This document shows positions 8,197 through 29,874 of a stretch of DNA of 64,000 nt, one piece after another. The DNA lies in the IMG/VR virus record IMGVR_UViG_3300009160_000029, positions 1 to 64,000 of that record. One strand, given 5' to 3'. Position 1 is the first letter of the stretch, and each line of letters starts with the position of its first letter. This DNA comes from a virus. Made by a program: the position numbers and the translations under genes. The notes under the pieces are model-generated. The model ran no database searches, had not been told where the DNA came from, and worked only from the letters and a program-made list of their open reading frames with translations.

Positions 8197-8200
8197 AAAA

Positions 8201-8208
8201 ACTAAATA
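8201..8208 (+). promoter_or_regulatory. Putative late promoter ACTAAATA upstream of gp18
   Basis: ACTAAATA shares six of eight positions with the T4 late -10 element TATAAATA. It recurs in front of five other late genes here. It lies just after the gp17 stop, giving a leader of about 55 nt for gp18. Confidence 0.6.
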
Positions 8209-8222
8209 GGTAAGAGAAATAG

Positions 8223-8242
8223 CACGTTTGTCAAGAAACGTG
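8223..8242 (+). other. Hairpin in gp18 mRNA leader
   Basis: cacgttt (8223-8229) and aaacgtg (8236-8242) form a perfect 7-bp stem with a 6-nt loop. There is no U-tract after it, so it is not a typical terminator. It sits near the expected 5' end of the late transcript and before the ribosome site aaagaggaga, so a 5' stabilising role is possible. Confidence 0.6.
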
Positions 8243-8268
8243 TCAATAATTAAAGAGGAGAGAGCAAA

Positions 8269-9978
8269 ATGGCATTCCAATTAAGTCCAGGAGTAATTGT
8301 CACAGAAAAGGACTTCACAAGTATAGTTCCTAATGTTGCCACAAGTGCAGGTGCATTTGTAGGTAAATTCGCATGGGGACCAATCGAAGATCCAGTGCAA
8401 ATTACATCCGAAAACGAATTAGTAGAAAGATTCGGTACACCAGATGATTCAACTTTTGAATCATTTTTTACTGCAGCTAACTTTTTATCATACTCGAATA
8501 ATTTATTCGTAGTAAGAGGAAATGGTTCAACTGATAGAAATGCAGGAATTAGTGGTACCGCAGTTAAAATTAAAAACGCAGAACAATACTTATCATCATA
8601 TGCAGGTGGTCAAGGAACTGTTGGCGAGTTCGCAGCTAAGTGGGCTGGAGCACGTGGCAATTCTTTAAAAGTATCAATGGCTGATAAGTCAACTTTCACA
8701 GGTTGGACTTATGAAACTAGCTTTGATAGATCGCCAGACACATCAGCTTGGGCAACATCAAATAACGTATCTAATGATGAAATTCATATTATCGTAATCG
8801 ATGAAGATGGATTATTTACTGGCACAGCTGGTACAATCTTAGAAAAATTTGAATATGTTTCAAAAGCATCAGGTGCTAAAAAATCTGATGGTTCAAACAA
8901 TTATTACAGAGATGTAATCAATTCAAATTCAAAATACATTTGGTGGATGGATCATCCAACTCAATCAGCAGAAGTTAATAATGCAGCGAATGGCAGTGCG
9001 GTAGCATGGGGAACAGCTCCAGCAGCACAACCATACAAAGATATTACAACAGCATTAAATGCTTCCTTAGTTGGTGGTGTTGATGACTATGCAGGTGTGA
9101 CTGCAGGAAACATTCAAACAGGTTATGCTTTGTTTGCAAACGATCAGCTTGACATATCGTTAGTCCTTTTAGGAAAAGCGACAGCAGCAACAGCAACTTA
9201 TGTAATTAATAGCGTCGTAGAAGTAAGAAAAGATGCAGTAGCTTTTATCTCTCCAGAAGCAGCAGGTGGTTCTTATATTTCTGATGCTTCAGCGACACCA
9301 GTAGCAGATATTATAACATATAGAACAGCACTTCCAAGTTCTTCTTATGCTATATTAGATTCTGGTTATAAATTCCAGTATGATCGTTATAATGACAAGT
9401 ATCGTTATGTCCCATTAAATGGTGATGTAGCTGGTCTTGCCGCAAGAACAGATTATGCTCAAGATCCATGGTATTCACCAGCAGGTGCAAATCGTGGTCA
9501 AATTAAAAATGTTGTTAAACTAGCATTTAATCCAAATAGAACACAAAGAGATTCACTTTATCAAAAAGGTGTAAATCCAGTTGTGACGTTTCCAGGAGAA
9601 GGAACTCAATTATTTGGAGACAAAACTTTATTGTCAGCACCAAGTGCTTTCGATAGAATCAATGTACGAAGATTATTCATTGTATTAGAAAAAGCGATCT
9701 CAATTGCTGCGAAAGCACAATTGTTTGAGTTCAATGATGCTTTCACTCGTGCTCAATTCAAAAATCAAATAGAACCATTCTTAAGAGACGTACAAGGTCG
9801 TCGTGGTATTACTGATTTTAGAGTTGTGTGTGATGAAACAAATAATACAGGTGCAGTAATCGACAGAAATGAATTTGTAGCAAGCATTTTCATTAAACCT
9901 AATCGCTCAATCAACTTCATTAATCTAACATTTGTAGCAGCAAGATCAAGTGTTAATTTTAGTGAAATCGGTGGCTAA
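8269..9978 (+). CDS. gp18: Tail sheath protein gp18
   Basis: A 569-residue contractile tail sheath subunit. The N-terminus MAFQLSPGVIVTEKDFTSIVP is the characteristic start of T4-like sheaths. The C-terminal part (NVRRLFIVLEKAIS...FLRDVQGRRGI...DRNEFVASIFIKP) is the conserved sheath domain that packs on the tube. It is shorter than T4 gp18 (659 aa), probably missing a protruding domain. A strong ribosome site (aaagaggag) precedes the ATG, consistent with a highly expressed protein. gp19 follows 20 bp later. Confidence 0.95.
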   Translation: MAFQLSPGVIVTEKDFTSIVPNVATSAGAFVGKFAWGPIEDPVQITSENELVERFGTPDDSTFESFFTAANFLSYSNNLFVVRGNGSTDRNAGISGTAVKIKNAEQYLSSYAGGQGTVGEFAAKWAGARGNSLKVSMADKSTFTGWTYETSFDRSPDTSAWATSNNVSNDEIHIIVIDEDGLFTGTAGTILEKFEYVSKASGAKKSDGSNNYYRDVINSNSKYIWWMDHPTQSAEVNNAANGSAVAWGTAPAAQPYKDITTALNASLVGGVDDYAGVTAGNIQTGYALFANDQLDISLVLLGKATAATATYVINSVVEVRKDAVAFISPEAAGGSYISDASATPVADIITYRTALPSSSYAILDSGYKFQYDRYNDKYRYVPLNGDVAGLAARTDYAQDPWYSPAGANRGQIKNVVKLAFNPNRTQRDSLYQKGVNPVVTFPGEGTQLFGDKTLLSAPSAFDRINVRRLFIVLEKAISIAAKAQLFEFNDAFTRAQFKNQIEPFLRDVQGRRGITDFRVVCDETNNTGAVIDRNEFVASIFIKPNRSINFINLTFVAARSSVNFSEIGG

Positions 9979-9998
9979 TAATTAAAGGAGAAACTTAA

Positions 9999-10592
9999 AT
10001 GGCTGATATAGCAGATTTTAAAGCACAAATGACTGGTGGCGGAGCACGTCCCAATCAATTTCGTGTTGAGTTAATTTTCCCTAGCTACGTTGTTGCAGGG
10101 ATTTTGGCAAGTGCACAAGCACAATTTTTATGTAAAGCAGCACAATTACCAGCAAGCACAATAGAGAACATTCCAGTTCAATATCGTGGTCGTGCTGTTA
10201 ATTTTGCAGGAGAAAGAACATTTGCTCCATGGACTGTCACAGTTTACAATGATACAAATTTCAATGTAAGAAATGCGATGGAACGTTGGTCAAATGGTAT
10301 TCAAAATTATCAAACAACTAATGGTCGTGTAAATCCAAGAGATTATCAAACGGATTTAGTAGTAAGACAATTAGATCGTTCAGGTGCAATTATTAAATCA
10401 TATCGTTTTGTTGATGCTTATCCAATTTCTATTGGTGTAGTTCAATTAGACTATGATACAGCAAATGCAGTTGAAACGTTTGATGTTGAATTTCAATACA
10501 ATTACTTTGATAGTGATACAGCTTCACGTGATGGTGTAGGAGTGAATATTTCAATTGATACACCAATTGGTTCATTCCCAATTAAAATATAA
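9999..10592 (+). CDS. gp19: Tail tube protein gp19
   Basis: A 197-residue subunit of the inner tail tube through which DNA passes. The motifs RPNQFRVELIFP, FLCKAAQLPAS and VQYRGRAVNFAGERTF are typical of T4-like gp19, and the size (T4 163 aa) is reasonable for a marine member. The start follows a strong taaaggag site. gp18-gp19-gp20 order is conserved. Confidence 0.94.
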   Translation: MADIADFKAQMTGGGARPNQFRVELIFPSYVVAGILASAQAQFLCKAAQLPASTIENIPVQYRGRAVNFAGERTFAPWTVTVYNDTNFNVRNAMERWSNGIQNYQTTNGRVNPRDYQTDLVVRQLDRSGAIIKSYRFVDAYPISIGVVQLDYDTANAVETFDVEFQYNYFDSDTASRDGVGVNISIDTPIGSFPIKI

Positions 10593-10626
10593 TAACAGAG
10601 TTCTAAAAAGAACTTAGAAATAGATT

Positions 10627-12192
10627 ATGGCAGAATTATTTGGCTTTGAGATTAAAAGAAAAACACCGAAGAAAGAACTTAGTTCGGTTGTCACACCATC
10701 TAATGTAGATGGTTCGACGTTGGTAGCAGACGCATCGGCATATTATGGATTAACACTTGATTTAGATGCGAGTATTAAGGGCGAAAACGATTTAATAAAA
10801 AGATATCGTGAAGTTTCTTATTACCCAGATGCTGATAATGCAATTGAAGACATTGTAAATGAATCAATTGTATTAGATAATCAACGTCTTTCAGTTGACG
10901 TAGTTTTAGACGATTTAAAAGCATCAGATAATATTAAAGAAGCTATAAGAAAAGAGTTCGAAGAAGTTTATAAATTATTAGATTTTGATTTACGTGGTCA
11001 TGATATATTTCGTACATGGTATGTTGATGGAAGACTGTACTATCATATAGTTATAGATCCAAAAAATACTAAAAACGGAATTAATGAATTAAGATTTATA
11101 GATCCACGTAAAATTCGTAAGATTAAGAATTATAAAAAAGAAAGAAATGATAAGGGTGTTGACGTAGTAAAAGATATACAAGAATACTACATTTACAATG
11201 ACAAAGGAATTACTGATAGTTTAGCAACAGGTATTAAACTATCTTTAGATTCAGTTGTATTTGCTCCATCAGGATTAACTGATTTAAATTCTGGTATGAT
11301 ATTATCGCATTTACATAAAGCGATAAAACCAGTGAACCAGTTAAAAATGGTAGAAGATAGTATAGTAATCTATCGAATATCAAGAGCACCTGAACGAAGA
11401 ATATTTTATATTGATGTTGGTAATCTGCCTAAGTTAAAAGCAGAGCAGTATGTAAACGACATCATGAATAAGTTTAGAAATAAAGTTGTATATGATGCAT
11501 CAACAGGTGAAGTACGAGATGATCGTAAACACATGTCAATGCTTGAAGACTTTTGGATGCCAAGAAGAGAGGGTGGTAGAGGAACTGAAATTACTACACT
11601 CCAAGGTGGACAAAATTTAGGCGAGATAGCTGATGTACAATATTTTCAAAAGAAATTATATCAATCTTTAAATGTTCCTGTCACAAGATTGTTAAGTGAA
11701 ACAGGATTTAATTTAGGAAGAGCAAGTGAAATAAGTCGTGATGAATTAAACTTCCAAAAGTTTATTGATAGATTAAGACGTAAATTTAGCACTATATTTT
11801 ACAGTCTTTTAAGAGTGCAATTAATTCTAAAAGGAATTATAAAAGATCAAGAGTGGGAACAGTTTTCTCAAGATATTCGTTTTGATTTTTTAAAAGATAA
11901 TTTCTTTACTGAATTAAAAGAAAACGAAATACTTGCTCAAAGAATTAATATGTTAAATTCTATTGAACAATATATTGGAAAATATTACAGTATTAGTTGG
12001 GTTCGTAAGAACATATTAAGACAAACAGAAGATGATATTTCGAAAATTGATAAAGAAGTAGCAGGCGAGCAAAGTAAAATACAAGATTTAAAAGTAGCTC
12101 AAACTGCTGAAACAGATGATGAAGCAATAGATGCAGAACAAGATAAAATTGATCTTGAATCTTCTCTTGTTGATAATACTAAAAAGGAATAA
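10627..12192 (+). CDS. gp20: Portal protein gp20
   Basis: A 521-residue protein that forms the dodecameric portal vertex, the start point of head assembly and the conduit for packaging. Recognisable motifs include YREVSYYPDADNAIEDIVNE near residue 60, the RIDPRKIRKI-type RFIDPRKIRKIK segment, RISRAPERRIFYIDVGNLP, and PVTRLLSETGFNLGRASEI in the C-terminal half. T4 gp20 is 524 aa. A short Glu/Asp-rich tail follows. Confidence 0.95.
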   Translation: MAELFGFEIKRKTPKKELSSVVTPSNVDGSTLVADASAYYGLTLDLDASIKGENDLIKRYREVSYYPDADNAIEDIVNESIVLDNQRLSVDVVLDDLKASDNIKEAIRKEFEEVYKLLDFDLRGHDIFRTWYVDGRLYYHIVIDPKNTKNGINELRFIDPRKIRKIKNYKKERNDKGVDVVKDIQEYYIYNDKGITDSLATGIKLSLDSVVFAPSGLTDLNSGMILSHLHKAIKPVNQLKMVEDSIVIYRISRAPERRIFYIDVGNLPKLKAEQYVNDIMNKFRNKVVYDASTGEVRDDRKHMSMLEDFWMPRREGGRGTEITTLQGGQNLGEIADVQYFQKKLYQSLNVPVTRLLSETGFNLGRASEISRDELNFQKFIDRLRRKFSTIFYSLLRVQLILKGIIKDQEWEQFSQDIRFDFLKDNFFTELKENEILAQRINMLNSIEQYIGKYYSISWVRKNILRQTEDDISKIDKEVAGEQSKIQDLKVAQTAETDDEAIDAEQDKIDLESSLVDNTKKE

Positions 12193-12195
12193 TTT

Positions 12196-12381
12196 ATGGA
12201 AATGAAAAACAAAATTAAAGACTTAATTGATAATATTGAAATAGGAAATGCTGACGCAATTAATGCATCGTTTTCAACAGTAATGGCTGAAAAAGTATCA
12301 GCAAGATTAGATAGTTTAAAGCAAGAAGTTGCTAATGTGGTATTTAAAGATAAAATAGAAAATAACGAAAAAAATAATTAG
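12196..12381 (+). CDS. gp67: Prohead core protein, gp67-like
   Basis: A 61-residue helical protein 3 bp after the portal gene, in the position of T4 gene 67. The segment NAINASFSTVMAEKVSARLDSLKQEVA matches the short helix motif of prohead core proteins of marine T4-like phages. Expected to be part of the scaffolding core and degraded by the gp21 protease. T4 gp67 is 80 aa. Assignment rests on position and this motif. Confidence 0.65.
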   Translation: MEMKNKIKDLIDNIEIGNADAINASFSTVMAEKVSARLDSLKQEVANVVFKDKIENNEKNN

Positions 12382-12392
12382 GAGTATTACTA

Positions 12393-12815
12393 ATGGCTGT
12401 CACAAAGACTATATTAAAAAAATCAAAAAATGAAGTTGTTGTTAAATTTGCAAATAACTCAGGAAATAATCAAACTTCAACTTTTGATTTAAGTGTAGAT
12501 GCTTTATTGAGCACTGAAGTAATTGAAGGCACAGTAAAAGTTAATATTTTAGCAATAGGTTTCTCTGGGCTTAATGGTTCTCATTTCACTTTATCAAGAA
12601 ACTCAGTAGGTATATTTGCTGCTCCTTGTGACCAACCAGATCAATTTTATTTTGAAGGATTTGTTGATGGAATTAATAACACAAGTGATATTGTTTGTAG
12701 TATGTCAGGCGAATGTTATGTGTATTTAACATTACGCAAAAATTCAGGATTTGAAACTAAAATAGAGACAGCACAATTTGGTTCTTATGATGATGACACT
12801 GCTAGAGGTAGTTAG
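12393..12815 (+). CDS. Unknown protein in the gp68 position
   Basis: A 140-residue protein between the core gene and the prohead protease, with a clear ribosome site (taggag). By order it replaces T4 gene 68 (a 141-aa core protein), but the sequence predicts beta strands rather than helices and holds three Cys residues in its C-terminal half, so it is probably not a gp68 homologue. A virion or head-surface role fits the context. The family was not recognised. Confidence 0.6.
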   Translation: MAVTKTILKKSKNEVVVKFANNSGNNQTSTFDLSVDALLSTEVIEGTVKVNILAIGFSGLNGSHFTLSRNSVGIFAAPCDQPDQFYFEGFVDGINNTSDIVCSMSGECYVYLTLRKNSGFETKIETAQFGSYDDDTARGS

Positions 12816-12819
12816 TTAA

Positions 12820-13479
12820 ATGAAACTTATTAGAGAATTTACAGAATCAGTAAAATATTTAATTGAATCTCCAACAAGTGCAGGAGCAAGTAAAAATTAT
12901 TTTATTGAAGGAGTATTTTTACAAGGTGAAATTAAAAATCGTAATGGTAGAGTATATCCTATGGATATAATGAAAAAAGAAGTTGAAAGATATACAAAAG
13001 AAAATATTGACAAGAATCGTGCGTATGGTGAATTAGGACATCCTGATTCTCCTACTATTAATTTAGATAGAGTATCGCACATGATAAAAGAATTGAAGCT
13101 TGAAGGCAATAATTATGTCGGAAAAGCGAAAATAATGGATACACCATATGGTAAAATCGTTAAGAGTTTAATTGACGAGGGTGCTAATTTAGGTGTTTCA
13201 TCTAGAGGGATGGGATCGTTAAGAGCAAGAAATGACGGAACTCAATTAGTACAAGATGACTTTATGCTAGCGACAGCTGGTGATATAGTTGCTGATCCAT
13301 CAGCGCCAGACGCATTTGTGCGAGGTGTTATGGAAGGAAAAGAGTGGGTGTTCGTTGATGGTAAATTCCTTGAGAAAGACATAGAGCAAGTAAGAAAAGA
13401 GATAGCAAGTACAAATAGAATAGCCCTTGCTGAAGCTCAAGCAATTCAGTTTGCAAACTTTCTTAAGAAAATAAAATAA
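12820..13479 (+). CDS. gp21: Prohead core scaffolding protease gp21
   Basis: A 219-residue serine protease that cleaves scaffold and capsid during head maturation. The conserved GELGHPDSP (His74) and VSSRGMGS (Ser127/128) fit the His-Ser catalytic pair of the T4 gp21 family. Its own N-terminal region FVEG-like motif (YFIEGVFLQG) starts the protease fold. Length is like T4 gp21 (212 aa). It precedes the scaffold gp22 as in T4. Confidence 0.92.
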   Translation: MKLIREFTESVKYLIESPTSAGASKNYFIEGVFLQGEIKNRNGRVYPMDIMKKEVERYTKENIDKNRAYGELGHPDSPTINLDRVSHMIKELKLEGNNYVGKAKIMDTPYGKIVKSLIDEGANLGVSSRGMGSLRARNDGTQLVQDDFMLATAGDIVADPSAPDAFVRGVMEGKEWVFVDGKFLEKDIEQVRKEIASTNRIALAEAQAIQFANFLKKIK

Positions 13480-13486
13480 CTAAATA
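13479..13486 (+). promoter_or_regulatory. Putative late promoter ACTAAATA upstream of gp22
   Basis: ACTAAATA overlaps the gp21 stop codon and precedes the gp22 start by about 45 bp. It is identical to the motifs before gp18, the 16487 gene, the 51802 gene and the 59861 gene. Confidence 0.6.
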
Positions 13487-13531
13487 TGAATGGAAAACCA
13501 TTCTTTATACATTTAAATTAGGAGAATATAA

Positions 13532-15124
13532 ATGAAGATCGAACAAACTATCGCAAAGCTGTTAGCTGAAGCGAACAAAGCTAAATCTCTATTATCTGAA
13601 CAAGATAAAGAGGGAAGTGCTTATGCTATTGGCATGGCAAAAGCTAAAGAAATTACAGGTGATGAACCACCTCTTGAAAAAGAAACAATCAAAAAAGCAC
13701 ACGACATTGCTAAAGGTATTCTTAAGAAAGAAGAAATCAATCCATTCAGTGGTCAAGCATTAAAGACTGAAGAGACTGAAGAAGAAAAGAAAAAAAGAGA
13801 AGAAGAAGAAAAGGCAAAAGCAGAAGCAGAAAAATCTACTAAATCTGAATCAGAAGTGGCTCCTAACACAGATGATAAGAAAAAAGAAGATGAAAAAGCT
13901 AAAGAAAAAGAAATCGTAAAAAAAACAGAAATGACTGACGACGAAAAGAAAAAAGCTGAAGACGAAGCAAAAGCTAAAGCTGAAAAAGAAAAAGCTGAAG
14001 TTAAATCAGAAGCTGAATTAACAGATAAACAAAAAACTTTACCACCTGCATTGCAAAAAGCAATTAAGGATAAAGAAGAAAAAGAAACTGTTAAAGAAGA
14101 AACTGAAGAAGAAAAAGCTAAAAGAGAAGCTGAAGAAAAAGCTAAAGCAGAAAAAGAAAAAGCTGAAGTAAAGTCAGAGTCTGAAGATAAAAAAGAAGAC
14201 GAAAAAGATGAAGATGAAAAAGAAATGAAATCTGAGTCTGAAGATGAGTCAGAAGATGAAGATGAAAAAGAAATGAAATCTGAGTCTGAATCTGAAGATG
14301 ATGAAGAAAAAATTAAAGAAAAAAATGCTAAAAAGCCAGACGAAGTGAAAATGAACGAAAAAACTAATGAATCAGTTAAAGTAGATGTATCTGCTGATGT
14401 TGAAGCATTATTAAAAGGTGAAACACTTTCTGAAGACTTTAAAGCAAAAGCAAAAGTAATATTCGAAAACGTAGTAATCAATAGAGTAAAAACTGAGATT
14501 GCTCGTATTTCAAATGAATTGACAACTGAAAATGCTAAAAACATGTCAGTTATCAAAGAGAGCCTGATTGAAAAAGTTGATGGATATCTCAGCTATGTAG
14601 TTGAGCAGTGGGTCTTACAAAATGAAATCGCTCTTGAATCAGGTATTAAGACTGAAATACTTGAAGACTTTGTAAGTGGTTTAAGAAATTTATTCGAAGA
14701 CCATTACATTGAAGTACCAAATGAAAGATTTGATGTACTTTCTGATCTTCAAGATCAACTTAATACTACCAAGAAAAAACTTGATGAAGCTACAACTGAA
14801 AATGCTAAAATTTCTAAAGCATTTAGTGATTTACGAAAAAATGAAATCATATCAGTAGTTTCAAAAGATCTAGTGTCAACAGATGCAGAAAAACTTAAAT
14901 CATTAGCTGAAGAGCTAACGTTTGAAGATGATGCGTCTTTTGAGAGAAAAGTACAGACAATAAGAGATAATTATTTCTCAGCAGTGTCTGCGACTCAAAA
15001 TTCTACTAAAACAATGGTAGATACAATAGTGACTGATGAGCCAATCGTTATCAACGAGTCAGCTAAAATAACTGACGTAAAAATAGCTGCATATGCAGAA
15101 CTATTAACTCGCTCAAAGAAATAA
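13532..15124 (+). CDS. gp22: Prohead core scaffold protein gp22 with long charged insert
   Basis: A 530-residue scaffold around which the gp23 shell assembles; in T4 it is digested by gp21. It is about twice the length of T4 gp22 (269 aa). Residues about 75-278 are low-complexity Lys/Glu/Asp/Ser repeats (EEEKAKAEAEK, DEKEMKSESE) predicted as an extended charged helix. The conserved gp22 core is at about 285-530, with an LLKGETLSEDFKAKAKVIFE motif, a coiled-coil (LDEATTENAKISKAFSDL) and the C-terminal YAELLTRSKK end. The short N-terminal part includes AYAIGMAKAKE. A strong taggag ribosome site is present. Confidence 0.88.
   Translation: MKIEQTIAKLLAEANKAKSLLSEQDKEGSAYAIGMAKAKEITGDEPPLEKETIKKAHDIAKGILKKEEINPFSGQALKTEETEEEKKKREEEEKAKAEAEKSTKSESEVAPNTDDKKKEDEKAKEKEIVKKTEMTDDEKKKAEDEAKAKAEKEKAEVKSEAELTDKQKTLPPALQKAIKDKEEKETVKEETEEEKAKREAEEKAKAEKEKAEVKSESEDKKEDEKDEDEKEMKSESEDESEDEDEKEMKSESESEDDEEKIKEKNAKKPDEVKMNEKTNESVKVDVSADVEALLKGETLSEDFKAKAKVIFENVVINRVKTEIARISNELTTENAKNMSVIKESLIEKVDGYLSYVVEQWVLQNEIALESGIKTEILEDFVSGLRNLFEDHYIEVPNERFDVLSDLQDQLNTTKKKLDEATTENAKISKAFSDLRKNEIISVVSKDLVSTDAEKLKSLAEELTFEDDASFERKVQTIRDNYFSAVSATQNSTKTMVDTIVTDEPIVINESAKITDVKIAAYAELLTRSKK
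13768..14340 (+). repeat. Low-complexity purine-rich stretch inside gp22
   Basis: The + strand is almost purely purine (gaagaa, aaagctgaa repeats), encoding Lys/Glu/Asp/Ser-rich irregular repeats such as AKAEKEKAEVKSE, seen three times, and DEKEMKSESE, seen twice. Confidence 0.8.
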
Positions 15125-15155
15125 ATTTAAAAAACAATAATAACGGAGAAACAAA

Positions 15156-16406
15156 ATGAAAAGTAGACAAGATCTATTAAAAAAATGGGCTCCTGTATTA
15201 GATCACGAAGGTGTTGCACCTATTAAAGATGCATACCGAAAAGAAGTGACAGCTGTTCTATTAGAGAACCAAGAGCGTTCTATTAATGAAGAAAAGCAAG
15301 CACTTTTTGAAGCAACTCACGCGAACGCAGCTGGTGCTTTACCAGACAGTTCAGGAGTAGCTAAATTTGATCCAATATTGATCTCATTAGTACGTAGAGC
15401 AATTCCACAAATGATCGCTTATGACATTTGCGGAGTTCAACCTATGACACAACCAACTGGTTTAATATTTGCTATGAAAAGCAGATATACAGCTCAGAAT
15501 GGTACTGAAGCATTATTTAACGAAGCTGATTCAGACTTCGGTGGTACAGGCACGCATGCTGGTTCAAATCCAGTAAGTGGTGGCTATACAACTGGAACTG
15601 GTTTAGCAACTACTGATGCTGAAGGATTAGGCGATTCAGGAACGTTCAATCAAATGGCGTTTTCAATCGAGAAAACTTCAGTGACTGCGAAAACTCGTGC
15701 TTTAAAAGCTGAGTACACAGTTGAATTAGCACAAGATCTAAAATCAGTTCATGGTTTAGATGCTGAGAGTGAATTATCAAATATCCTATCTACTGAAATC
15801 CTTGCGGAAATCAATAGAGAAGTAATTAGAACAGTTTACACATCAGCTAGAACAGGAGCTCAAGTCGGCACAACAACTGCTGGTACTTTTGATCTTGATG
15901 TAGATTCAAACGGAAGATGGTCAGTTGAGAAATTCAAAGGATTATTATTCCAAGTAGAGAGAGAAGCAAACGTTATAGCACAAGAAACACGTAGAGGAAA
16001 AGGTAATTTCATTATCGCTTCTTCTGATGTTGCGAGTGCATTAGCAATGTCTGGTGCTTTAGACTATGCTCCAGCTCTTTCAACAAATCTTAATGTAGAT
16101 GAAGCTTCTACAACTTTTGCTGGTGTCCTTAATGGTCGCTACAAAGTGTTCGTAGATCCATATTCTGCTAATAATGCAGCAACTCAGTTGCTATTAGTAG
16201 GATACAAAGGTAGTTCAGCATTTGATGCTGGTATCTTCTATTGTCCATACGTTCCATTACAATTGGTGCGTGCAGTAGATCCTTCTACATTCCAACCAAA
16301 AATAGCGTTTAAAACACGTTATGGTATGGTAGCGAATCCATTCGCAGGATTAACATCAAACACGAACTTCTACTATCGTAAAGTTGCCGTGACAAACTTG
16401 ATGTAA
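15156..16406 (+). CDS. gp23: Major capsid protein gp23
   Basis: A 416-residue HK97-fold shell subunit. Typical motifs are LDHEGVAPI at residues 16-24, ISLVRRAIPQMIAYDICGVQPM, a MKSRY segment, SVHGLDAESELSNILSTEI and a C-terminal FKTRYGMVANPF. A gp21-type cleavage site, hydrophobic-x-Glu, is visible as LFE/A at residues 50-53, which would release the N-terminal delta domain. It is shorter than T4 gp23 (521 aa) in line with marine members. A strong ribosome site (acggag) and the terminator that follows fit very high expression. Confidence 0.96.
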   Translation: MKSRQDLLKKWAPVLDHEGVAPIKDAYRKEVTAVLLENQERSINEEKQALFEATHANAAGALPDSSGVAKFDPILISLVRRAIPQMIAYDICGVQPMTQPTGLIFAMKSRYTAQNGTEALFNEADSDFGGTGTHAGSNPVSGGYTTGTGLATTDAEGLGDSGTFNQMAFSIEKTSVTAKTRALKAEYTVELAQDLKSVHGLDAESELSNILSTEILAEINREVIRTVYTSARTGAQVGTTTAGTFDLDVDSNGRWSVEKFKGLLFQVEREANVIAQETRRGKGNFIIASSDVASALAMSGALDYAPALSTNLNVDEASTTFAGVLNGRYKVFVDPYSANNAATQLLLVGYKGSSAFDAGIFYCPYVPLQLVRAVDPSTFQPKIAFKTRYGMVANPFAGLTSNTNFYYRKVAVTNLM

Positions 16407-23491: not shown

Positions 23492-23815
23492 ATGAAAACA
23501 AAACACAAAAAACCAATAACGATAAATCCATTTACTGGAAAATCAAATGAAGTAATTGTCCGTCAAGGAATGGCATCACAAACATCTGATGCTTATGGTG
23601 CTGTTGATAGAAGAGATGAATCTAAAACAGTTCTTAGAGATAAACAACATCACTTATACTTCAAATTAAAGCTAATTGAAAATTGGATATATGAAAAGAA
23701 ACATCGTAAGTTTTTTTCCGATTCAGAACCAACTATAAAACAATTAGAAACACAACGACATAATATGAAACATGAATATAATCGTGTGTCTAAATTATTA
23801 AAAGAAAGTAAATAA
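23492..23815 (+). CDS. Conserved small basic protein, unknown
   Basis: 107 residues, strongly basic at both ends, starting MKTKHKKPITINPFTGK and ending in a Lys-rich helix. It sits between gp46 and the deformylase with 3-bp and overlapping junctions, so it is in the same transcript. No motif was recognised; its basic character would suit nucleic-acid binding. Confidence 0.55.
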   Translation: MKTKHKKPITINPFTGKSNEVIVRQGMASQTSDAYGAVDRRDESKTVLRDKQHHLYFKLKLIENWIYEKKHRKFFSDSEPTIKQLETQRHNMKHEYNRVSKLLKESK

Positions 23816-24600
23816 TGACTGATATAAAAGAAGTTATATGGGATTCAGTGGACGAAAATGGTAATCCTATAAATCCAAGACTAGCTACTGTTGAAGAAAT
23901 AGAAACAAAAAAGAAATCAAAAGGACTTCCTATTATAGAAGAATCTTTTGATAAACGTATTACAAAACCAGAACCAACTAAGGTAGAAGTTAATATAACA
24001 AAGAGTAGTATAGATGGTAAAGAAATTATAACACCAGTAAGAACAACAGATGGTTTAATTCCATGGAATGATCCACGTTTAAAAACACCACCAAAAGAAT
24101 GGGACTTTAAAAAACCAGTAGAAGAAGCAGCACAATTAGGTTTATTATTAATTAAAGTAGCACAAAAATTAAATGGTGCAGGTCTTTCAGCGAATCAAAT
24201 AGGAATAGATGCAAAAGTATTTGCAATTACAGTAATTGAAAATTACCAATATGCTGCTTTCAATCCAGTAATATTAGAATCATCAGAAGAAACTGAATTA
24301 ATGGAAGAGGGATGTTTATCTCGTCCTGGACTGTGGTTGAAAATATCAAGACCAAAAAAAATTAAAGTTAAGTATTTCACATTTAAAGGTGAAGAAGTGC
24401 TTAATGAATTAGATGGTTTTCATTCGAGAGTATTTCAGCATGAATACGATCATATGCTAGGAATAGACTTTACTCAAAGAGTGGGTAAATTGAAATTAGA
24501 TATGGCTTTAAAAAAATTAGATAAACAATTAAGAAAAGCTGCAACTACTCAGCAATTAGAATACGAAGCGAAACTAAGACCTAAGTTATTTGCAAAATAA
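23815..24600 (+). CDS. def: Peptide deformylase with N-terminal extension
   Basis: 261 residues. Deformylase removes the formyl group from nascent N-termini. The three family motifs are present: GLSANQIG (123-130), EGCLS with metal-ligand Cys167 (165-169) and HEYDH (209-213). An extra ~80 residues precede the usual fold (DPRLKTPPKEWDF marks its start), unlike the very short deformylases of cyanophages. The role in phages is thought to be support of host-membrane or photosystem protein turnover; in a heterotroph host it may aid turnover of phage or respiratory membrane proteins. The start overlaps the upstream stop. Confidence 0.9.
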   Translation: MTDIKEVIWDSVDENGNPINPRLATVEEIETKKKSKGLPIIEESFDKRITKPEPTKVEVNITKSSIDGKEIITPVRTTDGLIPWNDPRLKTPPKEWDFKKPVEEAAQLGLLLIKVAQKLNGAGLSANQIGIDAKVFAITVIENYQYAAFNPVILESSEETELMEEGCLSRPGLWLKISRPKKIKVKYFTFKGEEVLNELDGFHSRVFQHEYDHMLGIDFTQRVGKLKLDMALKKLDKQLRKAATTQQLEYEAKLRPKLFAK

Positions 24601-25018: not shown

Positions 25019-25039
25019 TATATATCTTTTTTATTTTCT
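25019..25039 (+). repeat. 21-bp promoter-upstream element, copy 1
   Basis: tatatatcttttttattttct at 25019-25039 is repeated exactly at 27803-27823. Both copies end 8 or 7 bp before a TATACT/TA(G/T)AAT promoter, one before the CobT-like gene and one before the CobS-like gene. Confidence 0.75.
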
Positions 25040-25089: not shown

Positions 25090-27309
25090 ATGAATAAAAA
25101 AGATTTATTAGCGAAACTACTTTCTACTGAAAATATAACTGTTTTAAGACAGCCAGTTGCGACTGCATCTTTTAACGTTGAAACTAGAGTTCTTACTCTT
25201 CCTGTCTGGAAGAACCTTTCCGAAAATATTGAAAATATGTTAATTGCCCATGAAGTAGGGCATGCTCTTTACACTCCATTTAGAAAATCAGAAACAGAAG
25301 AATTTAATAATAATAAACTATTACATTCTTGGGCGAATGTTATTGAGGATGTTAGGATTGAAAAGAAAATACAAAACGAATATCCAGGATTGAAAAAAGA
25401 CTTTGTTTCAGCTTATAAAGAATTAGTTGATAGAAATTTCTTTGGCGTTAAAGGTAGAGATTTAGTAAAAGAACAATTTATTAATAAAGCAAATTTGTTT
25501 TATAAAGCTGGTTATAACTGTGGTGTTAAATTTACAACAGAAGAATATGGTTATATAAAAGAAATTGATAATTGTGAAACGTTTGATGATGTTATGAAGT
25601 TAGCAAAAAAACTTACTGCTTATTCTGTTGCTAAAAAAGAATTAGAAAAACAAGCTTTAGAAAAACTTGCTGCATTGTACTTACAAAATGGTGATGAGAA
25701 TGAACAAGGTGAACAACTTAAAGATTCTTTAAAAGATCTTCTTATGGATGAACTGGACGAAAATGGAAACAAAATAGGTGGTTCTAAATCTAATCCTGAA
25801 ATAACTGTTCCTGAAACTGATAATACTACTGAACAAACAATTCAAGACAAATTTGATAATATGTTATCAAAACACACAAGCAATAATGAATTTGTTATGG
25901 TTGACTATAATCCAAAATTTGTAGGATTCGATCCTTATGTACCATATACAAAATATATGGCAGATGTAGATGCTTGGTTAGCAATTAGAAAAACTAAAGA
26001 AGATTTAGAATTATTGAATGCTAAAAAAGCAGGTCATGAAGGATGGGAAACTACTGAAGATAAAATAAGATTAGCGAGCAGTGAATTCAATTCATATCTA
26101 CAAGAAACTAAAAAAGAAGTAAATTACTTGCTTAAAGAATTTGAAATGAGAAAATCAGCAAATCAATATTATAGAACAAAAGAACATAAAACTGGTGTAA
26201 TTGATATTAGGAAATTAGCATCTTATAAAATTAAAGAAGAAATATTTAAAACTATCCAATCATTACCAAAGGGAAAAAATCATGGAATGGTTATGTTAAT
26301 GGATTGGTCTGGTAGTATGAGTGGTATATTAAAAGATGTTATTAAACAAGTTTATTTAATGACTAGTTTTTGCAAAATAGCAAATATACCATTTACTGTT
26401 CTTGCTTTCACTAATGGTATATCTGACTCTAATCCTGAGAAAGCATTATGTGATGTTGAAAGAACAAAACAATTTGGTGAAAGATATATACCTTATGATA
26501 ATAAACTATCGCCTGAAGAAAATCAAACTAAAAAGACAATTTCTACAAATCAATTAGATGTTGAGATGTTTAGAGTTGTTGAACTTTTATCTAATAAAAT
26601 GAGCAAAGAAGAGTATAATAAAATGGGTGCTTTATTATTCTCTGAAATGTATAAGAATGTTTCTAATTATAAATTAGCATCAACTCCTTTAAATGAATCT
26701 TTATATTATATGATTGATTTCTTACCAAGATTTAAAAAATTAAATAATGTTCAAAAACTTTCTTTTATAGTATTAACAGATGGCGAAGGACATAGCATCT
26801 ATCCAAGACGTTTTGAATCTTACAGTTCTTATGGATCTACTATAAAAAAACATTTATATCTTAGAAAAGATAATAAAGACTATGAATTTAAAACATATAT
26901 GCAAACTGGTGCTTTAATTAAAATAATAAAAGATCAAGATCCAAATACAACTTGTCTTGCGTTTTCTTTAATAAGAAACAATAGAAGATGCATAAGCAAT
27001 ACATTATCCCAATTAACTAGTTATACAAATAATGGAAGTTATGGGTGTGCTGATGAATCTTCTGTAATTAAAATAGCAAAAGATTTTAAAGAATTAGGTG
27101 CTTCTGCATTAAAAGAAGTTAATTCTTATGATGAATATTATTTAATCCCGATAGAAAGTATTAAACCTGAAGCTTTAAATATTACTAATGATTTGAATTC
27201 TACAAAAGAAAAAACAGCAAATCAAATAGCAAAATCATTTACTAAGCTTTTAAAACAAAATAGAAATAGTAGATTCTTATTAACTTCTTTTGCAAAACAG
27301 GTAGCATAA
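25090..27309 (+). CDS. Metallopeptidase-like / VWA domain protein (CobT-like)
   Basis: 739 residues. The N-terminal HEVGHAL (54-60) is an HExxH zinc-peptidase site with ENVIEDVRIEKK-type continuation (WANVIEDVRIE near 87). The middle is charged and helical. A von Willebrand A domain begins near 398, with MIDAS motif DWSGSMS at 405-411. Marine T4-like phages have this gene next to a CobS-like AAA+ gene, and it is often labelled CobT, the cobaltochelatase subunit. The HExxH site instead suggests a regulated protease or chaperone-type MoxR/VWA machine. The next genes overlap or abut it. Confidence 0.8.
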   Translation: MNKKDLLAKLLSTENITVLRQPVATASFNVETRVLTLPVWKNLSENIENMLIAHEVGHALYTPFRKSETEEFNNNKLLHSWANVIEDVRIEKKIQNEYPGLKKDFVSAYKELVDRNFFGVKGRDLVKEQFINKANLFYKAGYNCGVKFTTEEYGYIKEIDNCETFDDVMKLAKKLTAYSVAKKELEKQALEKLAALYLQNGDENEQGEQLKDSLKDLLMDELDENGNKIGGSKSNPEITVPETDNTTEQTIQDKFDNMLSKHTSNNEFVMVDYNPKFVGFDPYVPYTKYMADVDAWLAIRKTKEDLELLNAKKAGHEGWETTEDKIRLASSEFNSYLQETKKEVNYLLKEFEMRKSANQYYRTKEHKTGVIDIRKLASYKIKEEIFKTIQSLPKGKNHGMVMLMDWSGSMSGILKDVIKQVYLMTSFCKIANIPFTVLAFTNGISDSNPEKALCDVERTKQFGERYIPYDNKLSPEENQTKKTISTNQLDVEMFRVVELLSNKMSKEEYNKMGALLFSEMYKNVSNYKLASTPLNESLYYMIDFLPRFKKLNNVQKLSFIVLTDGEGHSIYPRRFESYSSYGSTIKKHLYLRKDNKDYEFKTYMQTGALIKIIKDQDPNTTCLAFSLIRNNRRCISNTLSQLTSYTNNGSYGCADESSVIKIAKDFKELGASALKEVNSYDEYYLIPIESIKPEALNITNDLNSTKEKTANQIAKSFTKLLKQNRNSRFLLTSFAKQVA

Positions 27310-27626
27310 TGACTGAAACAATTTCATTAAAAGATAAAATTATAGAATTAAGATCTAAAATACTTATACATTCTTATATGTATTGGTATAAAGACAATCC
27401 TCTTGTGTCTGATGCTTTATTTGATGCTTGGAAAAAACAATTAGTTGAATATCAAGCTGAGCATAAACAAAAATTTCCTAATGAAAAAATAGAGTTTTTT
27501 GAAACTGCATTTATTAATTGGGATGGTACTAATTCAAAGGCACTCCCTTTATTTGATGAATGGATTACGAATAGAGTTGAGATGCTGGACAAATATAAAA
27601 ATGCAACTCCATACTTTAATATTTAA
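27309..27626 (+). CDS. Stand-alone NAD-dependent ligase Ia-like domain
   Basis: 105 residues, start overlapping the previous stop. Residues 12-45 follow the pattern of the Ia domain of bacterial LigA: LRSKILIHSYMYWYKD, then NPLVSDALFDAW, equal to the LigA pattern H-x-Y-x-Y-Y-x(3)-P-x-x-S-D-x-x-Y-D. In LigA this domain binds the nicotinamide mononucleotide half of NAD+. No adenylation, OB or BRCT domain follows, so it cannot ligate DNA alone. It may bind NAD/NMN or serve as a partner for another nucleotidyl transferase. The similarity is by eye. Confidence 0.55.
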   Translation: MTETISLKDKIIELRSKILIHSYMYWYKDNPLVSDALFDAWKKQLVEYQAEHKQKFPNEKIEFFETAFINWDGTNSKALPLFDEWITNRVEMLDKYKNATPYFNI

Positions 27627-27783
27627 ATTTATGATATTACTTTCTCTATCAGGTTGTTTTGGTTCCACACTATTAACTTTGGGTGGAATTAAAATAACCA
27701 CTGGGGATGTAATAACAAAAATCGTTAAAATTGTACCAAAAAACGATGAAAATCTAGAAGATTACGAAAATAAAAAACTATAA
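27601..27783 (+). CDS. Small lipoprotein
   Basis: 60 residues from ATG 27601, overlapping the ligase-like gene by 26 nt. A short signal sequence (MQLHTLIFKFMILLSLSGC) ends in a lipobox LSGC, so Cys19 would be lipidated and exported. The mature peptide is ~42 residues, hydrophobic then charged. A start at 27631 would leave too short a signal. Function unknown. Confidence 0.5.
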   Translation: MQLHTLIFKFMILLSLSGCFGSTLLTLGGIKITTGDVITKIVKIVPKNDENLEDYENKKL

Positions 27784-27802
27784 TATGACTAAGCTATTGA
27801 AA

Positions 27803-27823
27803 TATATATCTTTTTTATTTTCT
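27803..27823 (+). repeat. 21-bp promoter-upstream element, copy 2
   Basis: Exact copy of the sequence at 25019-25039, followed after 7 bp by the -35 of the CobS-like gene promoter. Confidence 0.75.
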
Positions 27824-27830
27824 GGAAGTA

Positions 27831-27859
27831 TATACTTTTTCAACGATTTATGGTATAAT
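27831..27859 (+). promoter_or_regulatory. Promoter upstream of CobS-like gene
   Basis: -35 TATACT 27831-27836 and -10 TATAAT 27854-27859 with 17-bp spacing. The expected transcript start is downstream of the upstream ATG at 27862, which supports ATG 27892 as the real start of the gene. Confidence 0.72.
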
Positions 27860-27891
27860 ATATGTATAAACTAACTAAAAAAGGCAAATAT

Positions 27892-29061
27892 ATGATGAAT
27901 GATGTGAATATAAAAAAGTTTGTAGAATCTCTACATAAATCTTATTCCAATGATGAGAATAAATTCAATTGGAAACAGATCGTTAAGGTTTTTAAAACCA
28001 CTAAATTTGATAACAAATCAGAAGTTTATAATTGGGTGAGAGCACAAAAAGCTGGAAGAGGTGCTTATATTATTCCTCTGTCAAGTGTTTCTTCTTCGGT
28101 GACAAATAATGTTGTCAAAGTAGATACTGTAAAATCTGAATCTTCTAATTTAGATGTTAAGTCTTTAGTTCCAATTAGAGATAGTAATTATGTTCCATTC
28201 GGAAATTACAAAGATTTAGAAACTATTATATCTTCTAAACAATTTTATCCAACATTTGTGACTGGACCGACTGGTAATGGTAAATCTACTTCAATTGAAC
28301 AAATTTGTGCAAAACATAAAATTTCTTTAATTAGAGTTAATTTAAACAGCTTAACAGATGAAGATCAATTAATTGGTACTAAAACACTTATCGATGGTAA
28401 TATACAAATCGTAGAGGGACCAGTTGTTATAGCAATGAGATTAGGAATCCCACTATTGCTTGATGAGATCGATGCTGGTGGTGCTAATACTCTATTATGC
28501 TTGCAACCTATCCTTGAAGGAAAGCCATTCTATTTTAAATTAAAGAATGAGATTATCGTTCCTAAATTTGGCTTTAATATATTCGCGACAGCGAACACTA
28601 AGGGTAAGGGATCAGAAGATGGAAGATATATTGGTACGAATGTTTTGAATGAAGCATTTCTTGAAAGATTTGCTGTGACATTCCAACAAGAATATCCAAC
28701 ACCATCGATTGAATTAAAGATCGTTAAAAATCTGATGGACTCTTATAAATGTAAGAATGACAAATTCGCTCAGACTTTAGTTAAGTGGGCTGATGTAATT
28801 AGAAAAACAAATGAATCTGGTGGTGTTGATGAAACAATTACTACAAGAAGATTGGTTCATATTGTAAGAGCATATTCAGTATTTAAAGATATGGATAAAT
28901 CTATACAGTTATGTACGAATAGATTCGATGAAGCAACAAGACTTGCTTTTATTGATTTATTTGACAAAGTATCAAATAACAAAGAAACTTCGGCTCCGAA
29001 ACCATCAGAGTCTGAAGTTGCGAGTGCTGTAGTTAATCAACAACAAACAGTGAGTGCTTAA
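27892..29061 (+). CDS. cobS: AAA+ ATPase, CobS/MoxR-like
   Basis: 389 residues from ATG 27892 (aaggc ribosome site; the upstream ATG overlaps the promoter). Residues about 5-65 are a small domain ending in YNWVRAQKAGRGAYIIPL that is shared with the two following proteins. The ATPase has Walker A GPTGNGKST (near 125), Walker B LLLDEIDAG (near 188) and a sensor ATANTKG. It matches the CobS-like proteins of marine T4-like phages, which are proposed to act in cobalamin synthesis. A MoxR-type partner for the VWA protein upstream fits equally. Confidence 0.85.
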   Translation: MMNDVNIKKFVESLHKSYSNDENKFNWKQIVKVFKTTKFDNKSEVYNWVRAQKAGRGAYIIPLSSVSSSVTNNVVKVDTVKSESSNLDVKSLVPIRDSNYVPFGNYKDLETIISSKQFYPTFVTGPTGNGKSTSIEQICAKHKISLIRVNLNSLTDEDQLIGTKTLIDGNIQIVEGPVVIAMRLGIPLLLDEIDAGGANTLLCLQPILEGKPFYFKLKNEIIVPKFGFNIFATANTKGKGSEDGRYIGTNVLNEAFLERFAVTFQQEYPTPSIELKIVKNLMDSYKCKNDKFAQTLVKWADVIRKTNESGGVDETITTRRLVHIVRAYSVFKDMDKSIQLCTNRFDEATRLAFIDLFDKVSNNKETSAPKPSESEVASAVVNQQQTVSA

Positions 29062-29426
29062 TGCTAACTTGGAATTCACTTACTAAATCACAAAAACGTT
29101 GGGTAGAAAACGTTGCGAAAATTCTACCCGATTGTGTGACAAATGGGCATATTACAGCAACACAATGTTATGACTCTTTTAAACTATTAGAAAAACAAAG
29201 AGTTTCAGGTAGTCCAAAAATTGGATATCCGAATTGGTTGTTTAAACTTAATAAAATTAAAAGAGGAATCTATTTGTTTCCAGCAGAGGGAGTGACAGTA
29301 CAAAAAGCATCTCAATCTTTAAGTGGGAAAGCTGAACCTATTGCTATTACCAACAGAGTATCAGAAGAAGATAAATCGTTTTTAAATGATTTAAAAGCTT
29401 TTGGTATTGATATAAAAGTTTCTTAA
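29061..29426 (+). CDS. Paralogous small protein sharing the CobS N-terminal domain (copy 1)
   Basis: 121 residues, start overlapping the cobS stop. The block IGYPNWLFKLNKIKRGIYLFP is nearly the same as in the 29527 protein and resembles YNWVRAQKAGRGAYIIPL of the CobS-like protein. The N-terminal half (KSQKRWVENVAKILPD) looks helical, so a small winged-helix-like fold is possible. The tail is acidic. Probably an interaction module of the AAA+ machine. Confidence 0.6.
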   Translation: MLTWNSLTKSQKRWVENVAKILPDCVTNGHITATQCYDSFKLLEKQRVSGSPKIGYPNWLFKLNKIKRGIYLFPAEGVTVQKASQSLSGKAEPIAITNRVSEEDKSFLNDLKAFGIDIKVS

Positions 29427-29526: not shown

Positions 29527-29874
29527 ATGATAACATACGATAATGCTTCTAAAGCCCAAAGAAAATGGATTGATGCAGTAATTACTATTTTTCCAAATAT
29601 TGAAAAAACAGGAGTAATTTCAGCAGCAGAATGTTATTCAGCTCATATGAATTTATTAAAAAATCGTAAAGCAGATTCAGATAAAATAGGATATCCTAAT
29701 TGGTTATTTAAAACTAATAAAATAAGTCCAGGAGTTTATTTTTTTCCTGCAAAAGGATTAAACCCTGAGAGTATAGTTAAAACGACTCCAGTGGGAGATT
29801 CTTCTGTAAGAGCAGAAGTATCAAAGACAGAGGAAGATAAACAATTTTTTAAAGATGTATTAACAAATGTATAA
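29527..29874 (+). CDS. Paralogous small protein sharing the CobS N-terminal domain (copy 2)
   Basis: 115 residues, a duplicate of the 29061 gene: IGYPNWLFKTNKISPGVYFFPAKG aligns with its IGYPNWLFK..RGIYLFPAEG, and both end with an acidic EEDK-x-F motif. It has its own promoter and overlaps the next gene by 8 nt, so it is expressed with the clamp operon. Function unknown. Confidence 0.6.
   Translation: MITYDNASKAQRKWIDAVITIFPNIEKTGVISAAECYSAHMNLLKNRKADSDKIGYPNWLFKTNKISPGVYFFPAKGLNPESIVKTTPVGDSSVRAEVSKTEEDKQFFKDVLTNV

What the first reader, a model, noticed from the sequence alone, without database searches (positions are those of the whole stretch)
25090..29061. CobT/CobS-like pair is probably a protease-chaperone machine rather than cobalamin synthesis
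The CobT-like protein has an N-terminal HEVGHAL zinc-peptidase motif besides the VWA MIDAS site, which cobaltochelatase CobT lacks to my knowledge. No CobN or other cobalamin gene is present. MoxR/VWA pairs usually remodel or activate other proteins. Both genes have the same 21-bp upstream element and TATACT promoter, marking them as a co-regulated unit.
Basis: partly seen in the sequence, partly recalled or inferred. Interest (0 to 1): 0.6.

Follow-up and report, generated by a model that had tools for sequence, protein, structure and literature searches.

The report
Phage zinc-peptidase and AAA+ motor pair
Two neighbouring phage genes usually labelled as vitamin-B12 genes look instead like an ATP-driven zinc-peptidase machine, because the phage protein keeps a complete peptidase site that true cobalt chelatases have lost.

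Summary
The 739-aa CobT-like protein (25090-27309) has HExxH at residues 54-58 plus a second conserved motif, N-x-x-E-D-x-R (83-89), and a complete MIDAS. HExxH is present in 104 of 104 family members that span it; the domain folds alone as a minigluzincin-like zinc peptidase (pLDDT 93; nearest solved structures are HExxH peptidases). Outside T4-like phages, 11 of 13 phage/plasmid/archaeal-virus relatives keep HExxH. Canonical chromosomal CobT has lost all three HExxH residues (0 of 32 loci) but keeps the second-helix glutamate, so it looks like a decayed relative. The CobS-like partner is a MoxR AAA+ ATPase, next to CobT in 79 of 80 loci, inside the T4-type replication/recombination cluster. 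No CobN was found in the 100-kb record, and the phage ribonucleotide reductase is class I. Best reading: AAA+ motor plus zinc-peptidase/VWA co-chaperone that remodels and probably cleaves proteins, not a cobaltochelatase; the client is unknown. The architecture is published for "group 2.2" jumbo phages (Iyer 2021), but another paper (Liu 2021) calls the cyanophage peptidase label a mistake; these data contradict that. Peptidase activity is untested.

The parts
25019..25039 (+). 21-bp element upstream of the CobT-like gene
   Evidence: exact copy, one of two in the window; kept in relatives
25090..27309 (+). CobT-like protein: zinc-peptidase (minigluzincin-like) domain, acidic linker, helical region, VWA/MIDAS domain
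   Evidence: PHROG 459 'peptidase' 6e-154; no Pfam CobT hit; model ma3f0863c8df1 pLDDT 80
25090..25692 (+). N-terminal domain (residues 1-201) predicted alone
   Evidence: pLDDT 93, pTM 0.88; Foldseek top 9 rows are minigluzincins jannalysin, abylysin and selecase
25249..25263 (+). HEVGH (residues 54-58): predicted zinc ligands H54 and H58, catalytic E55
   Evidence: H54, E55, H58 invariant in 77 of 77
25336..25356 (+). NVIEDVR (residues 83-89): second-helix motif, E86 the predicted third zinc ligand
   Evidence: N83, E86, D87, R89 invariant in 77 of 77
26302..26781 (+). stretch with the MIDAS residues D405-x-S407-x-S409, T532, D564 of the VWA domain
   Evidence: all invariant in 77 of 77
27309..27626 (+). 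stand-alone NAD+-DNA-ligase N-terminal (Ia) domain between the two genes; link to the pair unknown
   Evidence: PF22745 4.5e-17
27803..27823 (+). 21-bp element upstream of the CobS-like gene
   Evidence: exact copy
27892..29061 (+). CobS-like MoxR AAA+ ATPase, re-annotated start (listed ORF begins at 27862)
   Evidence: AAA_5 2.3e-13; PDB best midasin 1e-35, CobS 1.5e-23; start codon comparison
29061..29426 (+). orfA: free-standing relative of the N-terminal domain of the CobS-like protein
   Evidence: hhalign 97%, E 1.2e-10 for a single comparison
29527..29874 (+). orfB: paralogue of orfA (38% identical)

Best explanation
The pair is a MoxR-type AAA+ motor (CobS-like) with a VWA co-chaperone (CobT-like) that carries an intact minigluzincin-type zinc-peptidase domain. 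Inferred working: the CobS-like hexamer takes the VWA domain of the CobT-like protein onto its ring, as NorQ does with NorD and midasin with its MIDAS; the MIDAS and the variable N-domain of the CobS-like protein hold a client; ATP hydrolysis pulls or twists the client and presents a segment to the HExxH site, which cuts it. Shown by computation: homology, fold, conserved zinc-site and MIDAS residues, fixed pairing, location among replication/recombination genes. Inferred: complex formation, proteolysis, and that the client belongs to DNA replication or recombination. It is not a cobaltochelatase: canonical CobT has lost the HExxH residues that the mobile-element proteins keep.
For: HExxH in 104 of 108 CobT-like proteins of at least 300 aa, the 4 without it being cut at the 5' end; H54, E55, H58, E86, D87 and all MIDAS residues invariant in 77 of 77, and residues 1-120 the best-conserved part (mean 0.70 against 0.53 for the VWA). 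The N-domain alone folds at pLDDT 93; Foldseek's top 9 rows are jannalysin, abylysin and selecase, best E 0.012, probability 1.00; the 16 VIA rows with Z 4.6-6.7 are ZMPSTE24, selecase, ArdC, jannalysin, abylysin, BlaR1, IrrE/PprI and a putative Zn peptidase. VWA: NorD in NorQD Z 15.5, MDN1/Rea1 MIDAS Z 14-15. Distant relatives: 11 of 13 keep HExxH. Canonical CobT: 0 of 32 loci keep H/E/H, all keep the helix Glu. CobS-like neighbour in 79 of 80 loci. gp46/47 in 54 of 58 and gp45/44 in 54 of 61 loci with enough flank; DNA polymerase III alpha close downstream in 6 of 12 annotated non-T4 elements. No CobN in the record; class I ribonucleotide reductase.
Against: No activity, zinc or complex was measured. 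Fold matches are middling (Z under 7; no Foldseek hit below 1e-3), and no coordinates were at hand to measure zinc-site geometry. Two of 13 distant relatives (ANB28, hairong) have lost HExxH while keeping the pair, so the machine may work without cutting in some lineages. Cyanobacterial hosts do have PF02514 proteins, so a chelatase role cannot be excluded there by gene content. Location among replication genes is weak evidence for the client.
Confidence: 0.75

Rival explanations
1. Auxiliary cobaltochelatase: phage CobST team with host CobN to raise cobalamin supply (Liu et al. 2021, PMC8651126).
For: Real homology to CobS and CobT through intermediates: the E. coli phage CobT hits PF06213 7.6e-28 and CobT_C 2.1e-81. 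A Prochlorococcus and a Synechococcus assembly hold two PF02514 matches each. HVTV-1 has an annotated RNR alpha gene and no annotated beta gene in the 50 kb shown, so B12 dependence is possible there. In Pseudomonadota, strong CobT goes with CobN in 63 of 83 genomes against 29 of 216 without strong CobT.
Against: HEH and D87 are kept in phages and lost in chelatases. The window proteins fall below or outside the chelatase models. This phage has class I RNR. Relatives occur in E. coli, Vibrio, Acinetobacter and Pelagibacter elements whose hosts, as I recall, lack the late cobalt-insertion pathway.
Confidence: 0.1
2. Virion-assembly chaperone/peptidase, as proposed for the MoxR plus metallopeptidase-vWA pair of group 2.2 jumbo phages (Iyer et al. 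2021, PMC7824862).
For: Same architecture described in print (passage); that passage says a MoxR-vWA pair is needed for tail assembly of the Acidianus two-tailed virus.
Against: The pair lies between gp46/47 and gp45/44, away from the head and tail genes (54 of 58 and 54 of 61 loci). On an IncC plasmid it lies next to bet and exonuclease genes.
Confidence: 0.25
3. The zinc domain is a non-cutting client-binding or metal-delivery module; the machine only remodels or metallates a client, like NorQD.
For: Natural variants without HExxH exist and canonical CobT works without it; NorQD inserts iron (PMC13036017, passages).
Against: Strict conservation of the predicted catalytic Glu55 in 77 of 77, and HExxH in 104 of 104, fits catalysis better than binding alone.
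Confidence: 0.2

Closest known systems
MoxR AAA+ plus metallopeptidase-vWA pair of group 2.2 jumbo phages (Iyer et al. 2021, PMC7824862)
   Same: Same domain plan as described in the passage read
   Different: Cyanophage P-SSM2 is placed in group 2.1 by that paper; their proteins were not compared here; they propose virion assembly
T4-GC 146 'peptidase' plus T4-GC 150 CobS of cyanophages and pelagiphages (PHROG 459 / PHROG 249)
   Same: Direct relatives: full-length match 6e-154 to PHROG 459, same gp46 and gp45 neighbours
   Different: Window CobT is only about 29-33% identical to the cultured ones aligned; two extra CobS-N-domain-like proteins follow the pair
Cobaltochelatase CobS/CobT (TIGR01650; PF06213, PF11775)
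   Same: AAA+/VWA pair, N-domain homologous through intermediates, second-helix Glu kept
   Different: Chelatase CobT has lost H, E and H of HExxH; no CobN with the phage pair
NorQ/NorD
   Same: MoxR hexamer with VWA partner; VWA fold Z 15.5
   Different: The PMC13036017 passages read show NorD working in metal insertion and mention no peptidase
Midasin/Rea1
   Same: AAA+ region is the best PDB match of the CobS-like protein (1e-35); MIDAS match Z about 15
   Different: Single giant eukaryotic chain for ribosome assembly, without a peptidase domain (recalled)
Minigluzincins (abylysin, jannalysin, selecase) and Wss1
   Same: Closest fold of the N-domain; Wss1 partners the AAA+ Cdc48 (PMC4559962, abstract and passages)
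   Different: Wss1 has no VWA (recalled); the match of Wss1 itself is weak (Z 3.8)

Membership tests
Cobaltochelatase CobST | CobT matches the curated CobT models (PF06213/PF11775) | tested here: not met
   no hit for the window protein at E up to 1; S-PM2 and HTVC008M none at 0.1
Cobaltochelatase CobST | CobS above the TIGR01650 cut-off | tested here: not met
   86 bits against 558.55
Cobaltochelatase CobST | CobT N-domain lacks HExxH (feature seen in canonical CobT) | tested here: not met
   phage H-E-H kept; canonical 0 of 32 loci
Cobaltochelatase CobST | works with CobN to insert cobalt | not testable with these tools
   no CobN in the record; host unknown
MoxR AAA+/VWA chaperone pairs | MoxR-like AAA+ with Walker A and B | tested here: met
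   Walker A in 90 of 91 and Walker B in 89 of 91 complete relatives; AAA_5 hit
MoxR AAA+/VWA chaperone pairs | VWA partner with complete MIDAS encoded nearby | tested here: met
   MIDAS invariant 77 of 77; pairing 79 of 80
MoxR AAA+/VWA chaperone pairs | physical complex with VWA finger in the pore | not testable with these tools
   no complex was predicted
Gluzincin (zincin) metallopeptidases | HExxH plus a downstream helix Glu | tested here: met
   helices 45-61 and 76-97
Gluzincin (zincin) metallopeptidases | zincin fold | tested here: inconclusive
   top matches are HExxH peptidases but Z 4.6-6.7 and Foldseek E 0.012
Gluzincin (zincin) metallopeptidases | zinc bound and peptide bond cut | not testable with these tools
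   needs protein
DUF2201_N putative metallopeptidase (PF13203) | match over the Pfam cut-off | tested here: not met
   no hit for the window; a phage-type CobT in G003 (L193) reached 18.6 bits against 23.2

The most novel reading that the evidence does not exclude
A viral counterpart of Wss1/SPRTN with Cdc48/p97: an AAA+-driven minigluzincin that travels with the replication/recombination genes of phages, archaeal viruses and plasmids and strips or cuts proteins off the element's DNA, from which the chelatase subunit CobT later decayed into a dead peptidase.
Probability: 0.17. Interest if true: 0.8.

Novelty: new member of a known kind. Interest (0 to 1): 0.52.

Why it matters
CobS is a cyanophage core gene (PMC3037559, abstract) and is often counted as a vitamin-B12 gene; one paper states that it is unknown whether it has that function (PMC9983427, passages) and another that the peptidase label of its partner is a mistake (PMC8651126, passages). 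If the peptidase reading is right, a widely used metabolic marker of marine viruses is a protein-remodelling machine, and one point mutation (E55) tests it. It would also explain where chelatase CobT got its N-domain.

Tried and rejected
Sequence searches of the PDB with the window protein and with the 14-sequence profile gave no meaningful match. Direct profile comparison of the window N-domain with canonical CobT was not significant (hhalign E 0.037); the link runs through the SSU5-type and IncC-type intermediates (window to SSU5-type 1e-13, SSU5-type to canonical 1.6e-6, other mobile-element type to canonical 4.6e-10; unrelated VWA controls 0.29 and 0.33; all single comparisons). A T4-late-type promoter scan was uninformative (20 matches, 24.5 expected). 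VIA on the full model lists VWA proteins only, so the N-domain was folded alone. The solved CobT chains (9uka, 21vu) did not appear among the fold matches listed; this tells nothing. Cellular contigs found with the phage profile (18 loci) look like mis-binned phage contigs; that is a judgement, not a test. My first parse of canonical CobT loci recovered 20 of 32; all 43 held loci were then aligned. An HEPAH in L162 and an HEIPH in L182 lie off the aligned position. Staphylococcus phage Sb-1 has a related AAA+ gene beside a DUF7192 protein, not a CobT-like one. Distant relatives were picked by hand from hit lists, not sampled. A plain BLASTP of the CobS N-domain with orfA and orfB found nothing; only the profile comparison linked them.
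Full report
What is there. The window is 64 kb of a 99,969-bp IMG/VR virus record with a T4-type gene order: terminase, sheath, portal, scaffold and major head genes (6613-16406), UvsW-like helicase, late sigma factor, gp47, gp46, peptide deformylase, CobT-like, CobS-like, gp45, gp44, Hsp20, DNA polymerase B, UvsX, DnaB-like helicase. The CobT-like protein (25090-27309, 739 aa) is a full-length member of PHROG 459 'peptidase' (6e-154) and the CobS-like protein of PHROG 249 'porphyrin biosynthesis' (1.3e-100). In phage records, 463 of 50,697 match the CobT-like protein; 450 of these are named Synechococcus, Prochlorococcus or cyanophage, 3 Pelagibacter.

The peptidase site. In 14 aligned relatives (25-95% identical) HExxH and N-x-x-E-D-x-R-I are conserved. 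Of 108 proteins of at least 300 aa found with the family profile, 104 have HExxH near the N terminus and the 4 without it start at a contig end; a 109th match, 138 aa long, was left out. Many are near-identical, so I reduced to 77 sequences: H54, E55, H58, N83, E86, D87, R89 and all MIDAS residues are invariant. The search patterns that fetched most of these did not include the motif. The chance that four named sites all fall among the 37 invariant columns is 5e-6. Residues 1-120 are the most conserved region (0.70 against 0.53 for the VWA).

The fold. The full model has pLDDT 80. Its C-terminal half matches NorD VWA bound to NorQ (Z 15.5, rmsd 6.2, 262 aligned) and MDN1 MIDAS (Z 15.4, rmsd 3.2, 218 aligned). 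Residues 1-201 folded alone reach pLDDT 93, pTM 0.88, with the HExxH in helix 45-61 and E86 in helix 76-97. Foldseek's nine best chains are jannalysin, abylysin and selecase (best E 0.012); the VIA rows with Z 4.6 to 6.7 are zinc peptidases or their kin (ZMPSTE24 Z 6.7 rmsd 3.8 over 133; selecase, ArdC, jannalysin, BlaR1, IrrE/PprI). These Z values are middling, and shared fold does not show function.

Relatives outside T4-like phages. I read 13 CobT-like proteins from other elements. HExxH is kept in 11: E. coli phage CMS-2020a, Salmonella SSU5, Rhizobium Y2_11 and X66, Roseobacter CRP-810, Gordonia GMA3, Tsukamurella TIN4, an Acinetobacter plasmid, an IncC plasmid, Vibrio Saratov-12 (ICP2-like; there the third-ligand column reads V, not E) and the haloarchaeal virus HVTV-1 (HECGH followed by N-A-A-E-D); it is lost in Stenotrophomonas ANB28 and Pseudomonas hairong. 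HVTV-1 belongs to the Druskaviridae, one of the families for which Liu et al. [quoted passage not shown]

Canonical CobT. PF06213 was sought in 299 Pseudomonadota genomes: 93 had a match. All 43 loci I held from these (the 30 best, 11 weak and 2 intermediate; about half of the matches listed) were aligned: the HExxH columns read H-E-H in 5 (L183-L187, all weak PF06213 matches) and in none of the other 38, where they mostly read S/A-x-R/K; the glutamate of the second helix is kept in all 43. So chelatase CobT looks like a zincin that lost its zinc site, and the mobile-element proteins are the type that kept it; the direction of change was not tested with a tree. Strong CobT goes with CobN in 63 of 83 genomes, against 29 of 216 others; of the 5 genomes with H-E-H proteins, 2 have a PF02514 protein (G023, G259). 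PF02514 also covers Mg-chelatase H, so these counts are rough.

Pairing and place. A CobS-like gene lies downstream in 79 of 80 loci with at least 2.5 kb of sequence there; gp46/47 lies upstream in 54 of 58 and gp45/44 downstream in 54 of 61 loci with 3.9 kb. In 12 annotated non-T4 elements with a CobT-like gene, DNA polymerase III alpha follows closely in 6 (ANB28, Y2_11, X66, hairong, Acinetobacter plasmid, SSU5) and ssb, bet and exonuclease genes precede it in the IncC plasmid; in the other 5 no such neighbour was seen close by. The phage's own ribonucleotide reductase is class I, with alpha and beta genes, so it does not itself call for B12.

Regulation. The 21-bp element is exact upstream of both genes and nowhere else in the window, kept in most close relatives and in L036. 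A TATAAT box touches the listed cobS start, which is not conserved; 27892 is the likelier start. Downstream, orfA and orfB are free-standing relatives of the CobS-like N-domain and accompany the pair in the nearer relatives; they may share or compete for its partner.

How it most likely works. By analogy with NorQD (PMC13036017, passages) and midasin, the CobS-like ring turns or pulls the VWA of the CobT-like protein, whose MIDAS holds a client; the peptidase domain, tethered by an acidic linker (residues 201-262, 26% D+E), can then cut. Wss1, classed with minigluzincins and partnered by the AAA+ Cdc48 at DNA lesions (PMC4559962, abstract and passages), is the nearest functional parallel for a replication-associated use; this is analogy only.

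What is known. Iyer et al. 2021 (PMC7824862, passages) described a MoxR AAA+ with a vWA protein fused to an N-terminal metallopeptidase in group 2.2 jumbo phages and proposed a role in virion assembly; CobS and CobT have 0 occurrences in its main text. So the architecture is not new. In ten searches of the open-access library the listings showed no paper that joins this to the cyanophage/archaeal-virus 'CobST' or reports canonical CobT as a decayed zincin; most subscription papers are not held there, and I read passages of eight papers, not whole texts.

Noticed in passing
window 27309-27626: A stand-alone NAD+-dependent DNA-ligase N-terminal (Ia) domain overlaps the CobT-like stop codon and lies between the pair; its purpose is unknown.
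   Followed up: no
window 29061-29426 and 29527-29874: Two paralogous small proteins are free-standing relatives of the N-terminal domain of the CobS-like ATPase, conserved in nearer relatives; possible adaptors or competitors.
   Followed up: partly
G-handle genomes; control Caulobacter vibrioides: 20 of 83 genomes with strong chromosomal CobT, and Caulobacter vibrioides among the controls, show no CobN (PF02514), which hints that cellular CobST may also have a non-cobalamin role.
   Followed up: no
L135 (IncC plasmid), L142 (Acinetobacter plasmid): 1,781 of 72,556 plasmid records match the E. coli phage CobT-like protein, incl. IncC plasmids, where the gene (HExxH intact) follows ssb, bet and exonuclease.
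   Followed up: partly
window 23815-24600: A peptide deformylase gene lies just upstream of the pair (PF01327 2.6e-34).
   Followed up: no
L191 31534-32250: HVTV-1 also encodes a SprT-like protein six genes from its AAA+/VWA pair.
   Followed up: no
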